Shown piece after piece: positions 21,157 to 30,261 of a DNA stretch of 64,000 nt. The notes under the pieces were generated by a model. That model searched no databases and was not told the origin of the DNA. It saw nothing but the letters and a program-made list of their open reading frames with translations. Made by a program: the position numbers and the translations under genes. This stretch comes from Heterotrichella gracilis (Eukaryota; Sar; Xanthophyceae; Tribonematales; Xanthonemataceae), in assembly GCA_032358255.1 (NCBI GenBank), contig JAULBX010000003.1, positions 393,451 to 457,450 of the forward strand, given 5' to 3'. How positions within the stretch are numbered: position 1 is the stretch's first letter; every line of letters begins with the position of its first letter.

Positions 21157-22284
21157 GGTTTTTGGGGAGGGTTTCTGTGCCAGCAGACCCTAGCGACTGA
21201 GGCGGAAAAGCTGCTGATGGGCTATTAGGGTTTTGGCGAGGGTTTTCTGTGCAAGTGATGGATATTACAGGCTGATCGGGAATGTTGAGGGCCTGCTAGA
21301 GTAGGGTTGGGATGTGCAAGCGGGGGAGGGGAGGCTTGTGGTGGTGGCTGGGGGGGTTTACGTGGTGAGTGTCATACGTGCATGTTGTGAGTACCTGTGT
21401 GGGGATAAGCTAGGCGCTGTTTGGTGGCAGGCATGTGTGCTTGGGTATATGATAGGATATGGGTGAATGGGGGAGGCGCCATACCTGGAACGGGGGACGA
21501 GGGTGGGTTGTACGAGTAGGGGATTGAGGAGCGTCTGTGTGCAGCCGGCCGGCCCCGCGTGTGACGACAGTTATTTGATTTTCTGAATTTGTGGGAAGTG
21601 GATTTGATGCTTGAGATTATGGATTTTGGACGTTAGGATGAGCCATTGTGGGGAACTGCACACACATCACCAGCGTGCAGGTTTTGCGCAATGCTTGCTG
21701 GGATTCAGGGTCTGATGTGGTTCTGTGTGTTTCCTCGCCAATGGCCCCATGGACCCTAGATGGCAACCAGTCTCGCTACTGCTGAATTTGGTGACAGTGC
21801 GACTGACAGTATGCGCTTGTAGATACAGTCTGGGTAGAATTGGAACTCAACATGCTATGGGCCCAACTTGGGCGTGCGTCGGGAACCTAATTTTTGGGAG
21901 ATAAGTGTGATATAAATTGGTGTGCTTGAATAGTATGCAAGCGCTGTAATGATACTTTCTTGTTTTGTGACGGGACAATGACTGTAAGCAGAAGGCTTGC
22001 AAGCTTTGGCTTTGAGAGTGAAAACGTGTGGAGGAGGCCTTGATAATAGAGCCTGTCGCACATCATACATGACCACCACCACTATGTCATAGGTGGGGTA
22101 CTAGGATACTTGGTGGGAAACACAACCATTTACACGGCCTTGCCACAGTACTGAACAGATCTCTGGCTTTCTTAAGCTCATAGGCATAATGCAACTGTGC
22201 TTAGGTAGTCGTTCCCTATCATATCTTACGCCTCAACTTCAACTCAGGCTGAGCAAGCAGCAGGTTGGTGGTGGGGTAACAACC
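21157..22284. other. Intergenic region before the kinase-epimerase gene
   Basis: About 1.1 kb between two plus-strand genes, G-rich at first and AT-richer after 21580. It should hold the 3' UTR of one gene and the promoter of the next. An in-frame upstream ATG at 22189 would extend the kinase by 32 residues. No other gene was seen. Confidence 0.5.
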
Positions 22285-25200
22285 ATGGTGGGCAAGTACG
22301 TCGTAGGAGTGGATGGGGGCACGGAGAGCCTAAGAGCTGGCGTGTTCGACCTGGCTGGTGGGTGTACTTCTGCTGTTCGCCTGTGACCTGAGCTTGTAAC
22401 TGCAGCTATTGTCCGCCATGGGTGGCTGTGTATATTTGCAAGGTATAGTGCGAGGGGTACAAGGTCAAAGATAGTTCGGTTCTATCGCTTCGCCATAGGT
22501 TCTAAGTTTTATTTCTCGTTTTGCACCTTGCAGGGGTCTGTGGGCTGTTGGAATGTTTTGGTAGTAGGCCATGCGTGTGTGGGGCCATATGCATGCATGC
22601 ATTTGTTATGGTAGACATTTGACACCCCGAACGAGAGGTTCGCAAGCTGCGCTGTGCAACAACATGAATTTTTCTGCAGTTCCTGAACCTAAACCCACGA
22701 ATGTGGACCCCAGCCCCACCTGCCGCCCCCTGAGCTTGGATGCATGCATGTGTTGCACCCGCAAACCTCTATGCCCTAGAGGGTTGAGGCCCTTTGCCAG
22801 TCCTAACCAGTCTCTCTATGATAACAAGCGCAGATTATTGAGTACGTCCTTCCGCACACGTGTCTGCAGCCAGCTAGGCAGGATGCACATAGGTGGCGCA
22901 CAGTCCCCACACCACCTTCCCTCCCCGCAGGTACCCCGCTTGCATTCGCATCCTCCCCTTACACCACCACCTACCCCCACCCCTCGTGGGCGGAGCAGCA
23001 GCCACAGGACTGGTGGGAGGTGCGCTCCGAAAACCCTAGTGAACCCTAACCAAACCCTAGGGAAATCCAGGCCAGCATGCGCACAACGACCGATCAAAGC
23101 ACGCCTACTGAAATCACTGCAAGGAAAGGTAGCAGCGCTGCATGAATGGCATTTCCTCCTAAGTGCATGGTAAAGGCAGCAGCACTGCATGTGAGGCAAC
23201 GAAGCCTGAAAGGCGAGGTTATGGGCACAGCGTGCTTGCCCTGTCTTGTTGTCTTGTTGTCTTGTTATAGGCGGTACCACCTGTTCATCCTTCACCAAAT
23301 TTTCTCCATGCCATCAACGCAAATGGGTAGCAATTTTCATGTGGGTGGTGTGGCTGTGGCGGTGGTGGGTGCGGGCTGTGGTGTGTCATGCGGGTGGGTG
23401 TGGCTGGTGCAGGCGCTGGGCGTGGCTGTGGCTGCGGCTGTGGCTGAGGCTGGTGTGGCCCCGGAGGAGGTGTGTGCGCTGTGCCTGGACACCACATGCT
23501 GCACAGTGGTGGCGCTGGATGAAGGTGGGGATGCGTTCACGGACAAGGATTCTACCACTAGGGTTTTGTATTGGGCCTACTTTCTCCTTTGGAGACAAAA
23601 GCTTTGCTTTGTTTTAAAGGAAGGTTGTCGAGAGGAAGTGCGTGTTTTGTGAATGACCACAGTGGTATTGGTGCCGTATTGTTTAAGTTATTAGAGTTTC
23701 GATGGATACTGTATCTTTGTGCCAATTGCCTCTCCCAAAATCCACCCTCCCCGTCTCCTCCACCAGGTGGCGCCCCCCTGCGCCCCGCCCTCCTGTGGAT
23801 GGACATGCGCTCCGCACCCTGATTTCAAAACGAACCAGGACAAGTTTATTAGCCTGCCGCATTTTGAAACCACCTTGGCCGTTGCCTTCTCCGCACCTCA
23901 AATATGTCACTCCTCCCGTCCCTGTTTCACACTCTCCCTTCATTCCAGGTGGCGTCCCCCTACGCCCCGCCCTGCTGTGGATGGACATGCGCTCCGCCCC
24001 CCAGGCTGCACAGGTAGCGGCCACCGCTGACGTGGCGCTGGAGGTGAACGGAGGGGGTGCGGGGCCGGTGTCTGCGGAATGGATGGTGCCCAAGGCGCTG
24101 TGGCTGAAGCAGAACGAGCCAGGGGTGTACGATAGCGCCAAGTACATCTGCGAGTACCAGGTGAGGGGGTGGGTCGTTGTCCATCAAGGAATCGTTTCCT
24201 GATCCATTTGATTTATTTATATGTGCTGGTATTGGGAAGGGTTGTAAAGAGAAGGCTGTGAATGTGAATGTCACTTAATTCCTTTTCCTGAGGATTTGTT
24301 GAACCTCTCCTTTTGCACGCTGTATATGTTTACCCCCCCCACACACGCCACCCCTTCCCCCTCCCTGCAAGATATGCATGTTTGCCTTCCCCTTGTTGGA
24401 GGGCTAAACTCCCCCCCGTTATCCCTTTTTGTGTAGAAACGCATCATTTTCCTCCCCTTGTGCAGGACTACATGAACTTCCACCTGACAGGCGCCATGGT
24501 TGCCTCCCTGAACAACGTGTCTGTGCGCTGGCACTACCAGCAAGGCAGGGGCTGGCCGCTCACCCTGCTTGGGAAGCTTGGCATGGGTGACCTGGCGGGA
24601 AAATGGCCACAGCAAATTGTGGCGCCAGGTGGGTGGGGTGGGGTCCTGGTGAGGGGGCAGGGGGCCGCAGCAATGCATGGCAAATGTGTGCATCGCATTC
24701 AGGGGTGTTATCATCCTCAACATCAAGTTTTTGCGGGTATATATTGCAGTGGGAAAGGAGCTTAGGGAGAATTTGTTTTGTCCTATAACTTGAAAGTTTG
24801 CAAACACGTTTGACCGAAACTAATGCCATGTTTGATCTGCTTTATCACTTGGAGATGTCAGAAATATCATACAGAAGGGGGGAGGAAGAGGACTAAGATT
24901 GTCACTCACGTTAACTTGGGCCCATAACCCCTTTCCGCACCACAGGGGACGTTATTGGCGGGCTGACTCCTGCTGCGGCGGCGCACGTGGGCCTGCCACC
25001 TGGCACGCCTGTGGCGCAGGGGGGTGCGGATGCCTTCATCGGGATGATTGGCCTGGGGGTGCTGGAGTCAGGCCAGCTGGCGCTGCTGACAGGTGCGAGG
25101 GAAACCCTAGGGCAAAACCCTTGGGCAACCCTAGCAAACCTTAGGACATCCCATTCTCAGGAAACCCTTGCAAGCCCTGGAGAGGAATGGATTTGGTGTA

Positions 25201-28200
25201 CCACTCTCAGTGGGCCAAGTACTCAGGAACCACCATTATAAAGGGATTTTAACACCCTTGTCCAACACTGGGTAGCTGTGCAAATTACCTGATTTCCTCC
25301 CCTCTGCAGGCTCCTCCCATCTCCACCTGGGAATGACTGACCGCACCTTCCATGGCAAGGGCATCTGGGGCACCTACCCCGCCGCATTGCTGCCAAATGT
25401 GAACATCGTGGAGGGGGGCCAGACCTCCACGGGGAGCGTGATAAATTGGTTCAAGAGGAGGATTCTGGGGGATTCGGTGGGGTATGATGAGTTGAATGCA
25501 GAAGCAATGGAGGTTCCACCGGGGTGTGAGCAGCTGCTGTGTTTGGACCATTTCCAGGTGAGAAGAAACCCTTCTAGACTGGGCCTGCAATGGAAGTGAA
25601 GGGTGTGTCTAGGGTGTAAAAGAGGTAGCTGACAACTGCAAGGATCATATCATTGCATGCTACTGAATGCACAGGGTGTGCCTGGGTAATTATTCCCTAA
25701 ACCTTAAACCCTAAACCCTATTTCCAGGTGAGAAGAAGCCCTTCTAGACTGGGCCTGCAATGAAAGCAAAGGGAACAAATCGTCCAGGTTTGACAGCATG
25801 AACCCCTGTGTGTGCATGTAAGTGACAGCATCCCCTGACACAGCGTGAACCATACATTGTGGATCCACACCCCTTCTCATCCAGAAGTGGTATTGCATGC
25901 AGGGCAACCGAACACCGCACACCGACCCCCTATCAAGGGGTGTAATTGCTGGCCTCACGCTAAAGCATTCCAGGGGGCACATTTTCAGGGGCCTCATCGA
26001 GTCCGTGGCATTTGGGACCGAGCTCATTTTGGACACCATGCGCGCCCATGGCTATGCACCCACCTCAATCAACATTGCAGGAGGGGCCACCCGGTCGGAT
26101 TTGTGGCTGCAAATTCATGCTGATGTGTCGAATCTGCCCCTCAAGGTCATGAGGTAAGCAGATCAGTATGACGAGAAATGAGGATGGACAAGGTGGAAGC
26201 GATGAGGAGTCATGTATTGCAGGGTGATCACAGGTGATAGCATAAATGTCTTTTTGATGCAGCCCGGCTGATGTGCGGATGGCAATTTGGTGGCATATGG
26301 GGTGGTGCTTCTTGACTGCAGTTGCAACCTTTCACCTTCCAATTTAATCCCCAACCTTAAACCTTCAACCACATACTTTTGCAGGGTGGCAGAAGCCCCT
26401 GCGCTGGGCAGCGCCATCCTGGCTGCAGTTGCTGCTGGCCACTTCCCCGACGTGCCCTCTGCAGCGAGTGTTATGGTCCACCTTGACAGGGTAATTCAGC
26501 CAAATGAGGCGCGGCATGAGGAGTACAGGTGCGGGCACGTAATAACGAACAATGACTCTAAAAATTGTACAGGGGTGTCATAGTATTTTTAAAAGGTGTT
26601 GTGTCATGGGTGAGGGTGCGGTGACCTGGTGTCGATGAGCTGGCACTTGGCAGAGGAATAGGTATAGGTGTAAGAGGAAGAGTACAGGCCACTGCCTGGT
26701 GGATGCTGGCATCACTAAACCCTAACCCTAACCACTGAACCCTAACCCTGTGCGTGCACTCCTGCTCCCGACAGGCCCCACTACGCCGCCTACAAACACC
26801 TCTACCACGCACTGACGCCCACCTTCCACCGGGAAAACCCCACGTCACCAGCACCACCAACAACAACCCCACCACCCACCGGCACCGGTCCGGTCCCCAT
26901 CGTTGCCCCATCCATTTTGGCGGCTGATTTCGCACGCCTGGGTGAGGAGGTGGCTGCTGTGGTGGCTGCGGGTGCTGCGTGGATCCATGTGGACATCTTT
27001 GATGGCCAGTTTGTGGAAAACCTCACCATTGGACCACCAGTGGTAAGAGACTAGTCAGTACCGGGATAAAGTACTGGGATGATGTAGTTTATTTTTCTGA
27101 CTTTTCTGATTTTTTTCTGGCAAGTGACTTATGGTGGCATGGTTGGGTGATCTTGAGGAGATGTGGGGATTACTTGTGTTTTGAGTGTCAGTCTCAATAC
27201 CCCGGAGTCTACCTATGCAATGTGGCTGCGGTTTAGACAACTGGCACCCCCCACACCCTACCTTGAACCCTAAACCTGATCTTAAACCCTTAAGCCCTGC
27301 AGGTGTCGAGCCTACGAGCGCACACCCACGCCTTCCTGGACTGCCACATTGCCGTCATCAATCCCCACAAATACGTGCAACCCCTGGCCAAGGCAGGCGC
27401 ATCCCAGGTGAGCTTCCTCACTGGGGCTGTGGTTTCCTTGTCACACCTGCAGTCATTACTCGTGTTGTGAACCTGGTTTTTTATGCACATGGGCGCACAT
27501 GCGCTGCACACCTCATTGCGGGATGATGACCTTGTCACAGGGGTTGCCCATTGTTTGTACGAGCCGCGCCGGGTACGCATTTCTTTATATTTCTATTCTA
27601 ATTTGTTTTCACAATAATTAATTACATTAAAAATGCCTATTGTTCTTATTCTCATCCTTATCCTTTTTATAAATAGGTGACCTTCCACATAGAGGCTGTG
27701 GATGGCGCCACGTCAGCTGCTGAGCTGGCAGATAGCATCCACCAAGCGGGCATGCGGGCGGGCATTGCAGTCAGCCCTTCCACCCCTGTGGATGCTGTGT
27801 TCCCCCTGCTAGATGCAAGGGGGGTGGAGTGTGTGAATGTGATGAGCGTGCAGCCAGGTGAGCTGTGACTGTAATATCTTAGTGCAAAAGTTTGATTACG
27901 CGCAATATTAGCTGTATGGCCATACCCTGGGTAGCCATATAACTAAGGCCATGCTTGTCTAAACACTGTGTCCAATGCGCCACCCAGTTGCCCTTGTGCT
28001 AATACATTACATCAGTAGCTTGACATCAATAGCTTGATCATTTACTTCACTTGCCTGGATTTTATCAGCGCTGTACAACGTCAGCACATGTTACACACAA
28101 TCTCGCAGCATCCAACGCATGCACTTCCAGGTCAGCTGCATTTCCAGCCGCATTGAAAGGAAGTGCCTCCCCTCATCGCAGGCTTTGGCGGGCAAAAATT

Positions 28201-28441
28201 TGACACCTCATCCCTCGTCAAGATAGCCACCCTGCGGCAGCGCTACCCCTGGCTGGACATCCAGGTGGATGGCGGGATAAACGACAAAACGGGGAGGGCG
28301 GCAGCCGAGGCGGGGGCCAATGTGCTTGTGGCGGGCACCTATGTGTTCAAGAGCCCCAGGCCCCATGCGGCGACTATTGGCGGGCTGCTGGATGTCATTG
28401 CAGCCTGTATGGCTGACAGCCAAGCGGCGCTGTGTCACTGA
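22285..28441 (+). CDS. FGGY carbohydrate kinase fused to ribulose-phosphate 3-epimerase
   Basis: Thirteen exons join in phase to 750 residues: 22285-22357, 22931-23019, 23413-23524, 23949-24160, 24466-24628, 24946-25092, 25310-25557, 25903-26153, 26385-26528, 26775-27042, 27303-27407, 27677-27857 and 28182-28441. Residues 1-499 are a complete FGGY kinase: [47 protein letters not shown] and [20 protein letters not shown] Pro/Thr linker (502-519) leads to a complete epimerase (about 521-750): [42 protein letters not shown]. Metal and catalytic residues (His551, Asp553, the DCH His and the VDGG Asp) are present. The kinase C-terminus, linker and epimerase N-terminus share the exon 26775-27042. 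Expected chemistry is ATP-dependent phosphorylation of a pentulose (D-ribulose or D-xylulose) and Ru5P/Xu5P epimerisation; kinase substrate is not provable here. The ATG at 22285 has a good context; an in-frame ATG at 22189 could add a targeting leader. Confidence 0.93.
23755..23820 (+). pseudogene. Decoy copy of kinase exon 4 start
   Basis: A CCACCAG acceptor at 23766 followed by a near-identical copy of the exon that starts at 23949 (offset 182 bp). Both read G(A/V)[15 protein letters not shown], but the upstream copy then hits TGA at 23819-23821. Splicing to it would truncate the kinase after the ALLWMD motif. Confidence 0.85.
25551..25773 (+). repeat. Duplicated splice donor of kinase exon 7
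   Basis: About 53 bp starting TTTCCAGGTGAGAAGAA at 25551 recur at 25721 (offset 170 bp) with a few differences, including the exon's last bases, the donor and the intron start. The second copy is immediately preceded by AAACCCTAAACCCTA. Confidence 0.9.
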
Positions 28442-30261
28442 TGTGGTGCGCTCCCCTTGGGCAAATCACGGTTAGGAGCCCACCACTGCTGGCAGCCCAG
28501 GTGCATATTTTTTACTTGGCATGGTGGCATACCTACCACCACCATCACCACCACCACCACCACCACCACCACCACGGTATTTATATCAACATTTGGGTAG
28601 ACCTGTGCGACTCTGAGCATGGAGGAACTGGAAAACAATAATCATTGGTCAGTATTTTCTGGTTCTTATATTTTTTCCTTGGCATCGACAGCAGGGGAAG
28701 AAAATTAATTTATTCCTCTGGAACATTTGAACATGACCAGCCCGGTTCATGCAAGAGTTCTTGGTACAATTTTCAAGTGCCTGACCTCTCTGACGCCACA
28801 CCCGTCTGCGAGATAGCTCCAAGCTGTTCAGTGGGCCCAGCAAGCCCTGTATGTTGTGGCACAAAGGTTCATTCATCCATACCCCCATTGATGCTGTTGG
28901 CGTATATATTTTTTACCTAAATGACCTCTTGACAATGCCACAATCTTATGTCAGTCAAGTGGCTGCGATCATATCTGAGAAATATGTAGTACAATGTCAT
29001 GATAAAATGGATTGTGTATCGAGTGAAATCTGGTAAAACATATAGTTCATGATGAAATGTATTGGCTGTCGAGTGAATTTGGTCATGACCCTACTACTAG
29101 TGCACAATGACGACAACTACATCTAGTGTTGAATGCCAGATTGTCCTGAATACTTGCTCAAGGTGAAGCTATTAACGTTGCTCCAGCAGCGCATATTGTA
29201 GAGTCACTCTGGGTAAATTTCCCTCTGACAGGGTCTCCTAGGGTTCCAAAGGTCTTTCTAAAAAATTAACATTGTGTTCACTCCTGTCTTAATTCTGCTG
29301 CGATTGTTGCCTCAATACTGTCAAAGGAAACAGCATGTGTAAAACCATTGCTCATCTGCCAAGATCAAATACAATAATCCTCGGTGTCACTGACTGGATT
29401 GATACATTAAATTTCACCATTTGTGAAAAGCTGCAGCAGCAGTTGCTGTAAATTTAGTAGATACTCAGGATCTGACCTCTTGAGACCTGAAAGCTTAGCA
29501 GTCGCTATTACATTGTTTTAAGTAAAATGGATGGTTGCAAATGGCATACGCCACATAGCAAGGTGCCAGCGAAAAGGTTGCCTAAAAGCAGCTGCTGTGA
29601 AATTGAATTGCGTATTTGATGTGTGGCTTCATGACAATACTGTTCAGGCGAGTATTGTAGCATGTAGAATGTTGAATCAAATTTGATGTTGACACTTGTT
29701 CACGATATCAAGATGCATCTACGTTCTGTGGATTTTTCTCTTTTGCGTTCAGTGCAACTATGTGCACCTGTGCCTCAGCGCCACGTGGGATTGCTGGCCT
29801 GATGCAGTATGCTGCATTGGAAAATATGTGCGTCACAAAACTATTTAGGTGTTCCATGTGGCTTGCTGCAACATTGAGAGGCTCTGGCTTGCTTTCCCGT
29901 TGATTGCCAGCCTCAAGTCTATGTACCATAGTAGCCTTCTCCTTTCCATTGTGGCAGCCAGCGCCTGCACCCAGCTTGTGGTGCAAATGGCACAGAGATT
30001 TTGGCTTTATACTTTAAGCCTCCATGCTCAAAGGCAACTGCCCTCTGGCTCCTCTCAGTAGCCTGGCTGCATCCACCAGTCCCCCTGCGCCCATCACTCC
30101 CACATACATGCACACTGCAAGATTAAGTACATTGAAGGCAGCAACCCTCATAACTGGCAGCTGCATTTGTATGGGGCTGGAGCTCCCGCAGTTGCTCCAT
30201 GCTCCAAGGTGTCACCCCTTCGCCTTGCCCTCTCTACAACTTGTATTGGTGCCATCACCTC
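28442..30261. other. Gene-free region with CAC microsatellite
   Basis: About 1.8 kb between the kinase-epimerase (+) and the first SET gene (-), which converge. A (CAC)n tract lies at about 28537-28575. From 28640 the DNA is AT-richer with no open frame of interest. The portion 30020-30261 resembles the 3' coding part of the second SET paralogue (for example CAGTTGCTCCATGCTC near 30196) but is interrupted by a stop, so it appears to be a decayed 3' end. Confidence 0.5.

What the first reader, a model, noticed from the sequence alone, without database searches (positions are those of the whole stretch)
22285..28441. Kinase-epimerase fusion linking consecutive pentose steps
Seen: a full FGGY kinase (about 500 residues) and a full ribulose-phosphate 3-epimerase (about 230 residues) lie in one open reading frame; the exon 26775-27042 contains the kinase end, a Pro/Thr linker and the epimerase start. 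Established: FGGY kinases phosphorylate pentuloses and RPE interconverts Ru5P and Xu5P. Inference: free D-ribulose or D-xylulose is fed into the pentose phosphate or Calvin cycle by one bifunctional enzyme. I am not aware of this fusion being characterised.
Basis: partly seen in the sequence, partly recalled or inferred. Interest (0 to 1): 0.82.

Follow-up and report, generated by a model that had tools for sequence, protein, structure and literature searches.

The report
Algal sugar kinase fused to epimerase
A green alga's genome joins a sugar kinase of bacterial type and a sugar-phosphate epimerase of eukaryotic type into one protein, and the epimerase half has lost two active-site residues that nearly all its relatives keep, so it may do a new job.

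Summary
Thirteen GT-AG exons at 22285-28441 splice into one 750-residue frame: FGGY kinase (1-499), Pro/Thr linker (500-518), epimerase (519-750). Exon 26775-27042 carries the kinase end and the epimerase start; no in-frame Met lies between residues 462 and 630.

The kinase groups with proteobacterial, mostly alphaproteobacterial, kinases (up to 65% identity), the epimerase with eukaryotic cytosolic RPE: the protein is chimeric. No RPE lies in the held DNA of 86 bacterial kinase loci.

The functional reading is partly supported. The kinase passes no named subgroup's cut-off. The epimerase keeps its metal and acid-base residues but lacks two of three 'sulfur cushion' methionines (position 39: Met in 48 of 48 comparators; 72: 47 of 48). 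Against over-reading this: the alga's own cytosolic RPE lacks the third. A xylose isomerase gene lies 30 kb away; arabinose isomerase was not found.

Best reading: one bifunctional enzyme that phosphorylates a ketopentose and epimerises the product, with a retuned epimerase site. Expression, substrate and distribution in other algae were not testable here.

The parts
22285..28441 (+). whole coding span of the kinase-epimerase fusion, 13 exons, 750 aa
22285..22357 (+). exon 1: start ATG (context AACAACCATGG), kinase N-terminus with Asp10/Thr13
22189..22284 (+). optional upstream in-frame ATG; 32-residue extension MQLCLGSRSLSYLTPQLQLRLSKQQVGGGVTT without acidic residues, possible targeting peptide (untested)
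22931..23019 (+). exon 2 (kinase)
23413..23524 (+). exon 3 (kinase; Cys83, Cys84)
23767..23820 (+). decayed copy of the start of exon 4 inside intron 3, 49 of 54 nt identical, runs into TGA
23949..24160 (+). exon 4 (kinase; Trp136)
24466..24628 (+). exon 5 (kinase)
24946..25092 (+). exon 6 (kinase; Asp245)
25310..25557 (+). exon 7 (kinase; His269)
25903..26153 (+). exon 8 (kinase)
26385..26528 (+). exon 9 (kinase; Met462, last Met before Met630)
26775..27042 (+). exon 10: kinase C-terminus, Pro/Thr linker (residues 500-518), epimerase N-terminus with His551, Asp553 and Phe555 in place of the conserved Met
26998..27000 (+). codon TTT, Phe555: equivalent of RPE Met39
27303..27407 (+). exon 11: epimerase; His584 kept, Ala586 in place of the second conserved Met
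27351..27353 (+). codon GCC, Ala586: equivalent of RPE Met72
27677..27857 (+). exon 12: epimerase; Met660 (third cushion Met) kept
28182..28441 (+). exon 13: epimerase; Asp694 kept; stop codon

Best explanation
One nuclear gene of a green alga encodes a chimeric two-enzyme polypeptide. The N-terminal half is an FGGY sugar kinase of a proteobacterial, mostly alphaproteobacterial clade, most simply gained by horizontal transfer and now carrying introns. The C-terminal half is a diverged member of the eukaryotic cytosolic RPE group. The kinase phosphorylates a free ketopentose at O5 (D-xylulose or D-ribulose most likely). The tethered epimerase inverts C3 of the product, so the sugar enters the pentose phosphate pool in either 3-epimeric form. 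Two of the three methionines that normally cover the epimerase active site have been replaced, so I expect rates or substrate preference unlike those of ordinary RPE. Shown here: gene model, domains, catalytic residues, origins by tree, the substitutions. Inferred: expression, substrate, and that both steps run in sequence. My separate odds: single polypeptide 0.95; active kinase 0.9; pentulose-5-phosphate product 0.55; C3-epimerase activity retained 0.6.
For: Intact 750-residue frame over 13 GT-AG exons, shared exon 10, no internal epimerase start. Both domains complete in Pfam. Kinase Asp10/Thr13/Asp245, equivalent by motif to D8/T11/D221, whose mutation lowered activity in the Synechococcus kinase SePSK (PMC4880283, passages read); all three are invariant in the 6-row alignment A1. 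Epimerase His551, Asp553, His584, Asp694 and the tested phosphate-loop residues agree with 48 of 48 compared RPEs. Kinase within a 36-row group (SH-aLRT 100, quick tree): 22 rows labelled Alphaproteobacteria, 3 other proteobacterial classes, 11 unlabelled, among them the window itself, 5 plasmid rows and one Verrucomicrobiota MAG. Epimerase with the four other eukaryotic cytosolic rows (97/88). Highest-scoring FGGY models are pentulose kinases. Xylose isomerase matches cover model positions 1-435 at C2:382071-385660, 30,075 bp from the fusion's start; no L-arabinose isomerase match in this genome.
Against: No transcript evidence. No named kinase subgroup is passed, and the epimerase narrowly misses the cut-off of the rpe equivalog (208.5 against 212.6 bits). 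Two of three cushion Met are lost, and the domain sits on a long branch (1.49 against 0.64 for the alga's own cytosolic copy), which the tree program flags as unsure to place. The bacterial relatives show no RPE in the held DNA (0 of 86). The alga has a separate second kinase that looks like an ordinary xylulokinase (C902; label by eye), so D-xylulose alone would not need this gene. The xylose isomerase proximity is a single post hoc observation, with other genes between; each of its nine pieces alone is under the whole-protein cut-off. No other eukaryotic genome could be searched.
Confidence: 0.45

Rival explanations
1. One reading: a salvage enzyme for D-ribulose or D-xylulose whose epimerase half is ordinary RPE (EC 5.1.3.1); the Met changes are neutral drift.
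For: Metal, acid-base and tested phosphate-binding positions kept; 54% identity to rice cytosolic RPE; xylose isomerase matches present. The cushion is not untouchable: the alga's own C315 RPE has Leu at the third position and one bacterial row (L130) has Gln at the second.
Against: Met39 is Met in 48 of 48 and Met72 in 47 of 48 compared RPEs, and none of the 48 lacks two of the three; even E. coli D-allulose-6-phosphate 3-epimerase keeps all three (by eye).
Confidence: 0.27
2. The epimerase half has been recruited to another ketose phosphate (for example L-ribulose 5-phosphate, a tetrulose, hexulose or 1-deoxy-ketose phosphate) made by the kinase half, or now allows isomerisation as well as epimerisation.
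For: Loss of two of the three residues credited with preventing isomerisation. Of 6 distant family members of unknown role, 3 could be aligned: one has Cys and one Ala at position 39, one has Leu at 72. The kinase's Cys84 and Trp136 align with Cys97 and the Trp of ribulokinase 3qdk, not with XylB (read by eye; pocket meaning partly recalled). Bacterial relatives are more often beside TPP-dependent dehydrogenase-like subunits (22-23 of 86) and SDRs (21 of 86) than beside pentose phosphate enzymes (rpiB 6, transketolase 4, RPE 0 of 86).
Against: No arabinose isomerase match in the genome and a single partial class II aldolase locus, which speaks against an L-ribulose route. No positive evidence for any particular other substrate.
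Confidence: 0.2
3. The kinase is the working enzyme and the epimerase barrel is a weak or dead passenger kept for dimerisation or stability.
For: Two active-site Met lost, long branch; two other intron-bearing RPE genes could cover the reaction.
Against: All four metal/acid-base residues and every tested phosphate-loop residue are intact, which a dead barrel would not be expected to keep.
Confidence: 0.05
4. Two adjacent genes wrongly joined by the reading of the sequence (separate transcripts), or a misassembly.
For: No RNA data; one TGTAA in intron 9.
Against: One continuous exon holds both domain ends, there is no stop between them and no Met for a separate epimerase.
Confidence: 0.03

Closest known systems
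Unassigned FGGY kinases of Alphaproteobacteria (L042 and L075, 65% identity; Skermanella L027, 58-59%)
   Same: Same FGGY group; full-length alignment, same catalytic residues
   Different: Stand-alone bacterial genes in catabolic loci with ABC transporters, Dak-type kinase, class II aldolase or TPP-dependent subunits; no RPE in the held DNA of 86 loci
Cytosolic ribulose-phosphate 3-epimerase of rice (PDB 1h1y) and the alga's own C315 gene
   Same: Same family, same His/Asp metal and acid-base residues, same group in the tree
   Different: Stand-alone; Met at the first two cushion positions (C315 has Leu at the third, where the fusion keeps Met); introns of C315 at other positions (by eye)
L-ribulokinase AraB (3qdk) and xylulokinase XylB (2itm)
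   Same: Best FGGY function models; third and fourth best solved chains, after 3gg4 and 3ifr
   Different: Scores below both curated cut-offs; no epimerase domain
Plant/cyanobacterial XK-1 / SePSK (D-ribulose kinase activity in SePSK, PMC4880283 passages)
   Same: FGGY family, same catalytic Asp/Thr/Asp motif
   Different: Distant by sequence: chains 5htr and 5htn, which I take to be these proteins, match at 1e-7 and 4.8e-7; no epimerase
Bacterial 1293-residue protein in L176 (P-loop N-terminus by eye, class II FBP aldolase, RPE-like C-terminus)
   Same: A multi-domain chain that ends in an RPE-family barrel with a changed position 39 (Cys)
   Different: No FGGY match; another RPE subfamily; bacterial

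Membership tests
FGGY carbohydrate kinase family | FGGY_N plus FGGY_C domains above curated cut-offs | tested here: met
   115.1 bits (cut-off 28.8) and 140 bits (27), profiles covered 1-245 of 245 and 2-198 of 198
FGGY carbohydrate kinase family | catalytic Asp/Thr near the N-terminus and catalytic Asp in the cleft (SePSK D8, T11, D221) | tested here: met
   D10, T13, D245 by motif, invariant in the 6-row alignment A1; SePSK itself not aligned; role from PMC4880283 passages
D-ribulokinase / L-ribulokinase / D-xylulokinase (named subgroup) | curated equivalog or subfamily score | tested here: not met
   302.5 of 428 (ribulokinase PRK04123), 287.1 of 380.25 (XylB), 266 of 408.7 (pentulose kinase), 243.8 of 583.25 (L-ribulokinase)
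Ribulose-phosphate 3-epimerase family (PF00834) | domain score over cut-off | tested here: met
   206.4 bits against 21.1, profile positions 2-198 of 198
Ribulose-phosphate 3-epimerase, EC 5.1.3.1 | NCBIfam rpe equivalog TIGR01163 score | tested here: not met
   208.5 against 212.6 bits, a narrow miss; subfamily model NF004076 is met (208.9 against 165)
Ribulose-phosphate 3-epimerase, EC 5.1.3.1 | two His and two Asp for metal and acid-base catalysis | tested here: met
   His551, Asp553, His584, Asp694; same letters in 48 of 48 others
Ribulose-phosphate 3-epimerase, EC 5.1.3.1 | three conserved Met forming the sulfur cushion (PMC9978339 passages) | tested here: not met
   Phe555, Ala586, Met660: one of three kept; 46 of 48 comparators keep all three, C315 and L130 keep two
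Ribulose-phosphate 3-epimerase, EC 5.1.3.1 | activity on D-ribulose 5-phosphate | not testable with these tools
   needs an assay
Bifunctional kinase-epimerase (both steps in one chain) | single open frame with both complete domains | tested here: met
Bifunctional kinase-epimerase (both steps in one chain) | single transcript and protein in the cell | not testable with these tools
   no RNA or protein data

The most novel reading that the evidence does not exclude
A horizontally acquired bacterial ketose kinase was fused to a eukaryotic RPE copy, and the RPE half was then re-specialised by swapping out the methionine cushion, so that the chain carries out a two-step conversion not covered by either parent family: phosphorylation of an unusual ketose followed by epimerisation, or mixed epimerisation and isomerisation, of its phosphate.
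Probability: 0.26. Interest if true: 0.8.

Novelty: new variant of a known kind. Interest (0 to 1): 0.57.

Why it matters
Both halves belong to well-known families, but I found no account of their fusion in the listings of searches. It would be a case of a bacterial-type enzyme gene in an alga physically joined to a host-type enzyme, which points to the next step of its pathway. The lost methionines give a natural test of the proposal that these residues are what makes RPE an epimerase rather than an isomerase. If the substrate is D-ribulose, it would also offer an entry route for ribitol carbon in green algae; polyols are how trebouxioid algae pass carbon to lichen fungi (PMC6652019, passages read), though the species here is not identified.

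Tried and rejected
Structure prediction: not run.

Bacterial or viral fusions: tblastn of the whole protein against 72,556 plasmid records found 1274 with a match and 0 covering 80% of the query in one place. A viral-contig scan with the kinase alignment gave 21 pattern matches, none confirmed. In 10 kinase-bearing bacterial genomes RPE matched in 9 of 10, in open frames of 223-288 aa, too short for a fusion. Among 120 genomes of the phylum of L044's genome (Pseudomonadota, inferred; 115 with an RPE-family match) only two listed open frames exceed 700 aa. One (G024, L176) has no FGGY match. The other (G041, L177) is, by eye, an over-long frame running into an ordinary rpe gene.

Recent duplication of the alga's cytosolic RPE: intron positions of C315 and C22 do not match those of the fusion (by eye), and identity is 47% and 41%, so any such duplication is old.

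Third RPE of the assembly (C533): intron-free, beside Bacteroidetes-like genes (by eye); treated as contamination, but kept as a row.

Neighbourhood logic: 8 ORFs upstream of the fusion, chosen by eye, gave only sub-cut-off HEAT and protein-kinase matches (2 of 8; 6 of 8 nothing). ORFs downstream were listed but not scanned. The xylose isomerase link lies outside the window and is only suggestive.

Papers: ten searches; no title or abstract start in the listings describes this fusion (one search showed 20 of 24). Opened: PMC3245297 (outline, Results section, passages), PMC4880283, PMC9978339 and PMC6652019 (passages only). Subscription journals are mostly absent from that library.

Paralogue check: 6 distant family members fetched, only 3 aligned; the other 3 were dropped by my frame filter and are not counted either way.

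Mended on re-checking: an early note called C315 intact; one search shows it has Leu at the third cushion position. For that reason I moved 0.02 from the re-specialisation rival to the plain one and lowered the novel case from 0.28 to 0.26.
Full report
What was checked. I rebuilt the gene from the sequence. Thirteen exons with GT-AG introns give 2253 nt, one terminal stop and a 750-residue protein. Pfam finds FGGY_N (5-252), FGGY_C (262-449) and Ribul_P_3_epim (523-720), all complete or nearly so and far above cut-off.

Is it truly one protein? Exon 10 first continues the kinase: its opening codons align with the C-terminus of bacterial relatives across the exon 9/10 junction. It then encodes a 19-residue Pro/Thr linker (500-518) and the epimerase start. 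There is no stop between the domains. The in-frame methionines are at 462 (kinase) and next at 630 (deep in the barrel), so an epimerase-only product has no start codon. Short of transcripts this is strong evidence. A second in-frame ATG upstream (22189) would add 32 residues without acidic side chains, which could be a targeting peptide; the downstream ATG has what I recall as the stronger context. Location in the cell is therefore open.

The organism. The window is G000:C2:393451-457450 of a 68.5 Mb assembly with 903 contigs. The genome carries a RuBisCO small-subunit gene in a locus where an upstream exon reads like a transit peptide followed by MQVWTPVNNK (by eye), which I recall as typical of green algae. 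The species is not identified. Some contigs are probably bacterial: C533 is intron-free with Bacteroidetes-like neighbours (by eye).

Origin of the kinase half. It is 58.6% identical to a Skermanella plasmid gene and up to 65% to Rhodospirillales/Pelagibius genes (L042, L075). In a quick tree of 87 rows (the window, 80 loci, 6 plasmid loci) it falls in a 36-row group with SH-aLRT 100: 22 rows labelled Alphaproteobacteria, one each Betaproteobacteria, Deltaproteobacteria and Lambdaproteobacteria, 11 without a class label, among them the window, 5 plasmid rows and one Verrucomicrobiota MAG. Its exact place inside is unresolved.

Origin of the epimerase half. Identity is 54% to rice cytosolic RPE, 47% to the alga's own C315 RPE and 41% to its plastid-type C22 RPE (both own-genome proteins are my splicings). 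In a 49-row tree it groups with the four other eukaryotic cytosolic sequences (97/88), on a long branch that the program flags as unsure to place. The introns differ from those of C22 and C315 (by eye). The fusion therefore joins a bacterial-type and a eukaryotic-type enzyme, and nothing suggests the pairing came from the bacterial side. tblastn with two RPE queries found none in the held DNA of any of 86 bacterial kinase loci (3.7 to 21.5 kb each; best E 0.43), while it found all 10 control RPE loci.

Active sites. Kinase: Asp10, Thr13 and Asp245 correspond by motif to the residues whose mutation lowered activity in SePSK (PMC4880283, passages). The residues aligned to the specificity positions discussed for the family (PMC3245297, Results section read; I mapped them by eye through the alignments) are Cys83/Cys84, Trp136 and His269. 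Cys84 and the Trp match the ribulokinase chain 3qdk rather than XylB, but NCBIfam puts the protein below the cut-off of every named kinase subgroup it lists. So it is a ketose kinase of unassigned specificity.

Epimerase: against 48 other RPE-family sequences (3 from this genome, of which C533 is probably contamination; 5 from PDB printouts; 40 bacterial), the metal and acid-base residues, the Ser of the PS motif, and the tested Pro/Gly/Gln and Gly positions of the phosphate loops are identical in all 48. Four positions stand out in the fusion: Phe for Met39 (Met in 48 of 48), Ile for Leu71 (Leu in 48 of 48), Ala for Met72 (Met in 47 of 48; Gln in L130) and Glu for the Pro of VPN (Pro in 47 of 48; Asp in L128). 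The review PMC9978339 (passages) describes three conserved Met as a sulfur cushion that stabilises the intermediate and prevents isomerisation. The fusion keeps one; 46 of the 48 keep all three and two keep two. One of those two is the alga's own cytosolic C315 copy, with Leu at the third position, so single losses occur in what is presumably a working enzyme, and the loss in the fusion should not be over-read. E. coli D-allulose-6-phosphate 3-epimerase keeps all three (by eye), so losing them is not simply what a change of sugar requires. Of 6 distant family members fetched, 3 aligned: one has Cys and one Ala at position 39, one Leu at 72. The 30 rows are top-scoring RPEs, which biases the comparison towards conservation.

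Metabolic setting. The FGGY_C and FGGY_N searches show two other FGGY loci, C902 and C123 (only the best candidates are scored, so a distant XK-1-type kinase could be missed). By eye they look like a xylulokinase and a glycerol kinase (labels from recalled motifs). Two intron-bearing RPE genes exist besides the fusion. A xylose isomerase model is matched by nine pieces covering positions 1-435 at C2:382071-385660, minus strand, 30,075 bp from the fusion's start; all nine pieces lie at this one locus, and each alone is under the whole-protein cut-off. L-arabinose isomerase gave no match, and class II aldolase gave one partial locus. This favours D-xylulose over L-ribulose as a free ketopentose. 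It is one post hoc observation: the chance of two given loci lying within 30 kb in 68.5 Mb is about 0.1%, but I tried several families, and other genes lie between (weak protein-kinase and HEAT matches). In the bacterial relatives the loci are varied: TPP-dependent dehydrogenase-like subunits in 22-23 of 86, SDRs in 21, Dak-type kinase in 8, rpiB in 6, class II aldolase in 4, transketolase in 4. None of this names a substrate.

Mechanism I commit to. ATP-dependent phosphorylation of a ketopentose by the N-terminal half, followed by C3 epimerisation of the product by the C-terminal barrel, both on one chain. D-xylulose is fed by xylose isomerase or polyol oxidation; D-ribulose is the main alternative. 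Because a separate xylulokinase-like gene and two further RPE genes exist, the fusion should have a special role, either a particular sugar or a particular compartment, and the changed cushion suggests the epimerase step is no longer ordinary. I give the whole statement 0.45.

Novelty. Searches of the open-access library with FGGY / ribulose-phosphate 3-epimerase / fusion, xylulokinase / epimerase / bifunctional, domain fusion / alga, the two Pfam names and pentulose kinase / epimerase / fused returned no paper about such a protein; the few hits were unrelated by title and start of abstract. Annotated algal proteomes could not be searched, so the architecture may well exist unremarked in databases.

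Verdict. It is a new variant made of known families, with one unexpected feature, the replaced methionine cushion.

Noticed in passing
window 23767-23820: A decayed copy of the first 54 nt of exon 4 (49 of 54 identical) sits in intron 3 and runs into a stop; a failed exon duplication or poison exon.
   Followed up: partly
G000:C2:382071-385660 (about 8 kb before the window start): Xylose isomerase matches in nine pieces on the minus strand, 30 kb from the fusion on the same contig.
   Followed up: partly
L039 (G000:C315) about 2496-2587 and 2736-2786: The alga's cytosolic RPE gene carries two partial tandem copies of its second exon (by eye).
   Followed up: no
C315 RPE (L039): The alga's cytosolic RPE has Leu where 47 of 48 compared RPEs have the third cushion Met.
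   Followed up: partly
L176 1275-5156 (G024:C15): Bacterial 1293-residue open frame with a P-loop-like N-terminus (by eye), a class II FBP aldolase match and an RPE-family C-terminus, next to a nucleotidyltransferase-like gene (by eye).
   Followed up: partly
L040 (G000:C533): Contig of the algal assembly with intron-free Bacteroidetes-like genes (by eye), probably contamination.
   Followed up: no
L028, L029, L030, L031 and others: Related bacterial kinases sit in a conserved cluster with TPP-dependent dehydrogenase E1 subunits, a carboxymuconolactone-decarboxylase family protein and SDRs: a sugar pathway without an assigned substrate.
   Followed up: partly
window 28535-28575: Short ACC trinucleotide array about 95 bases after the stop codon.
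   Followed up: no
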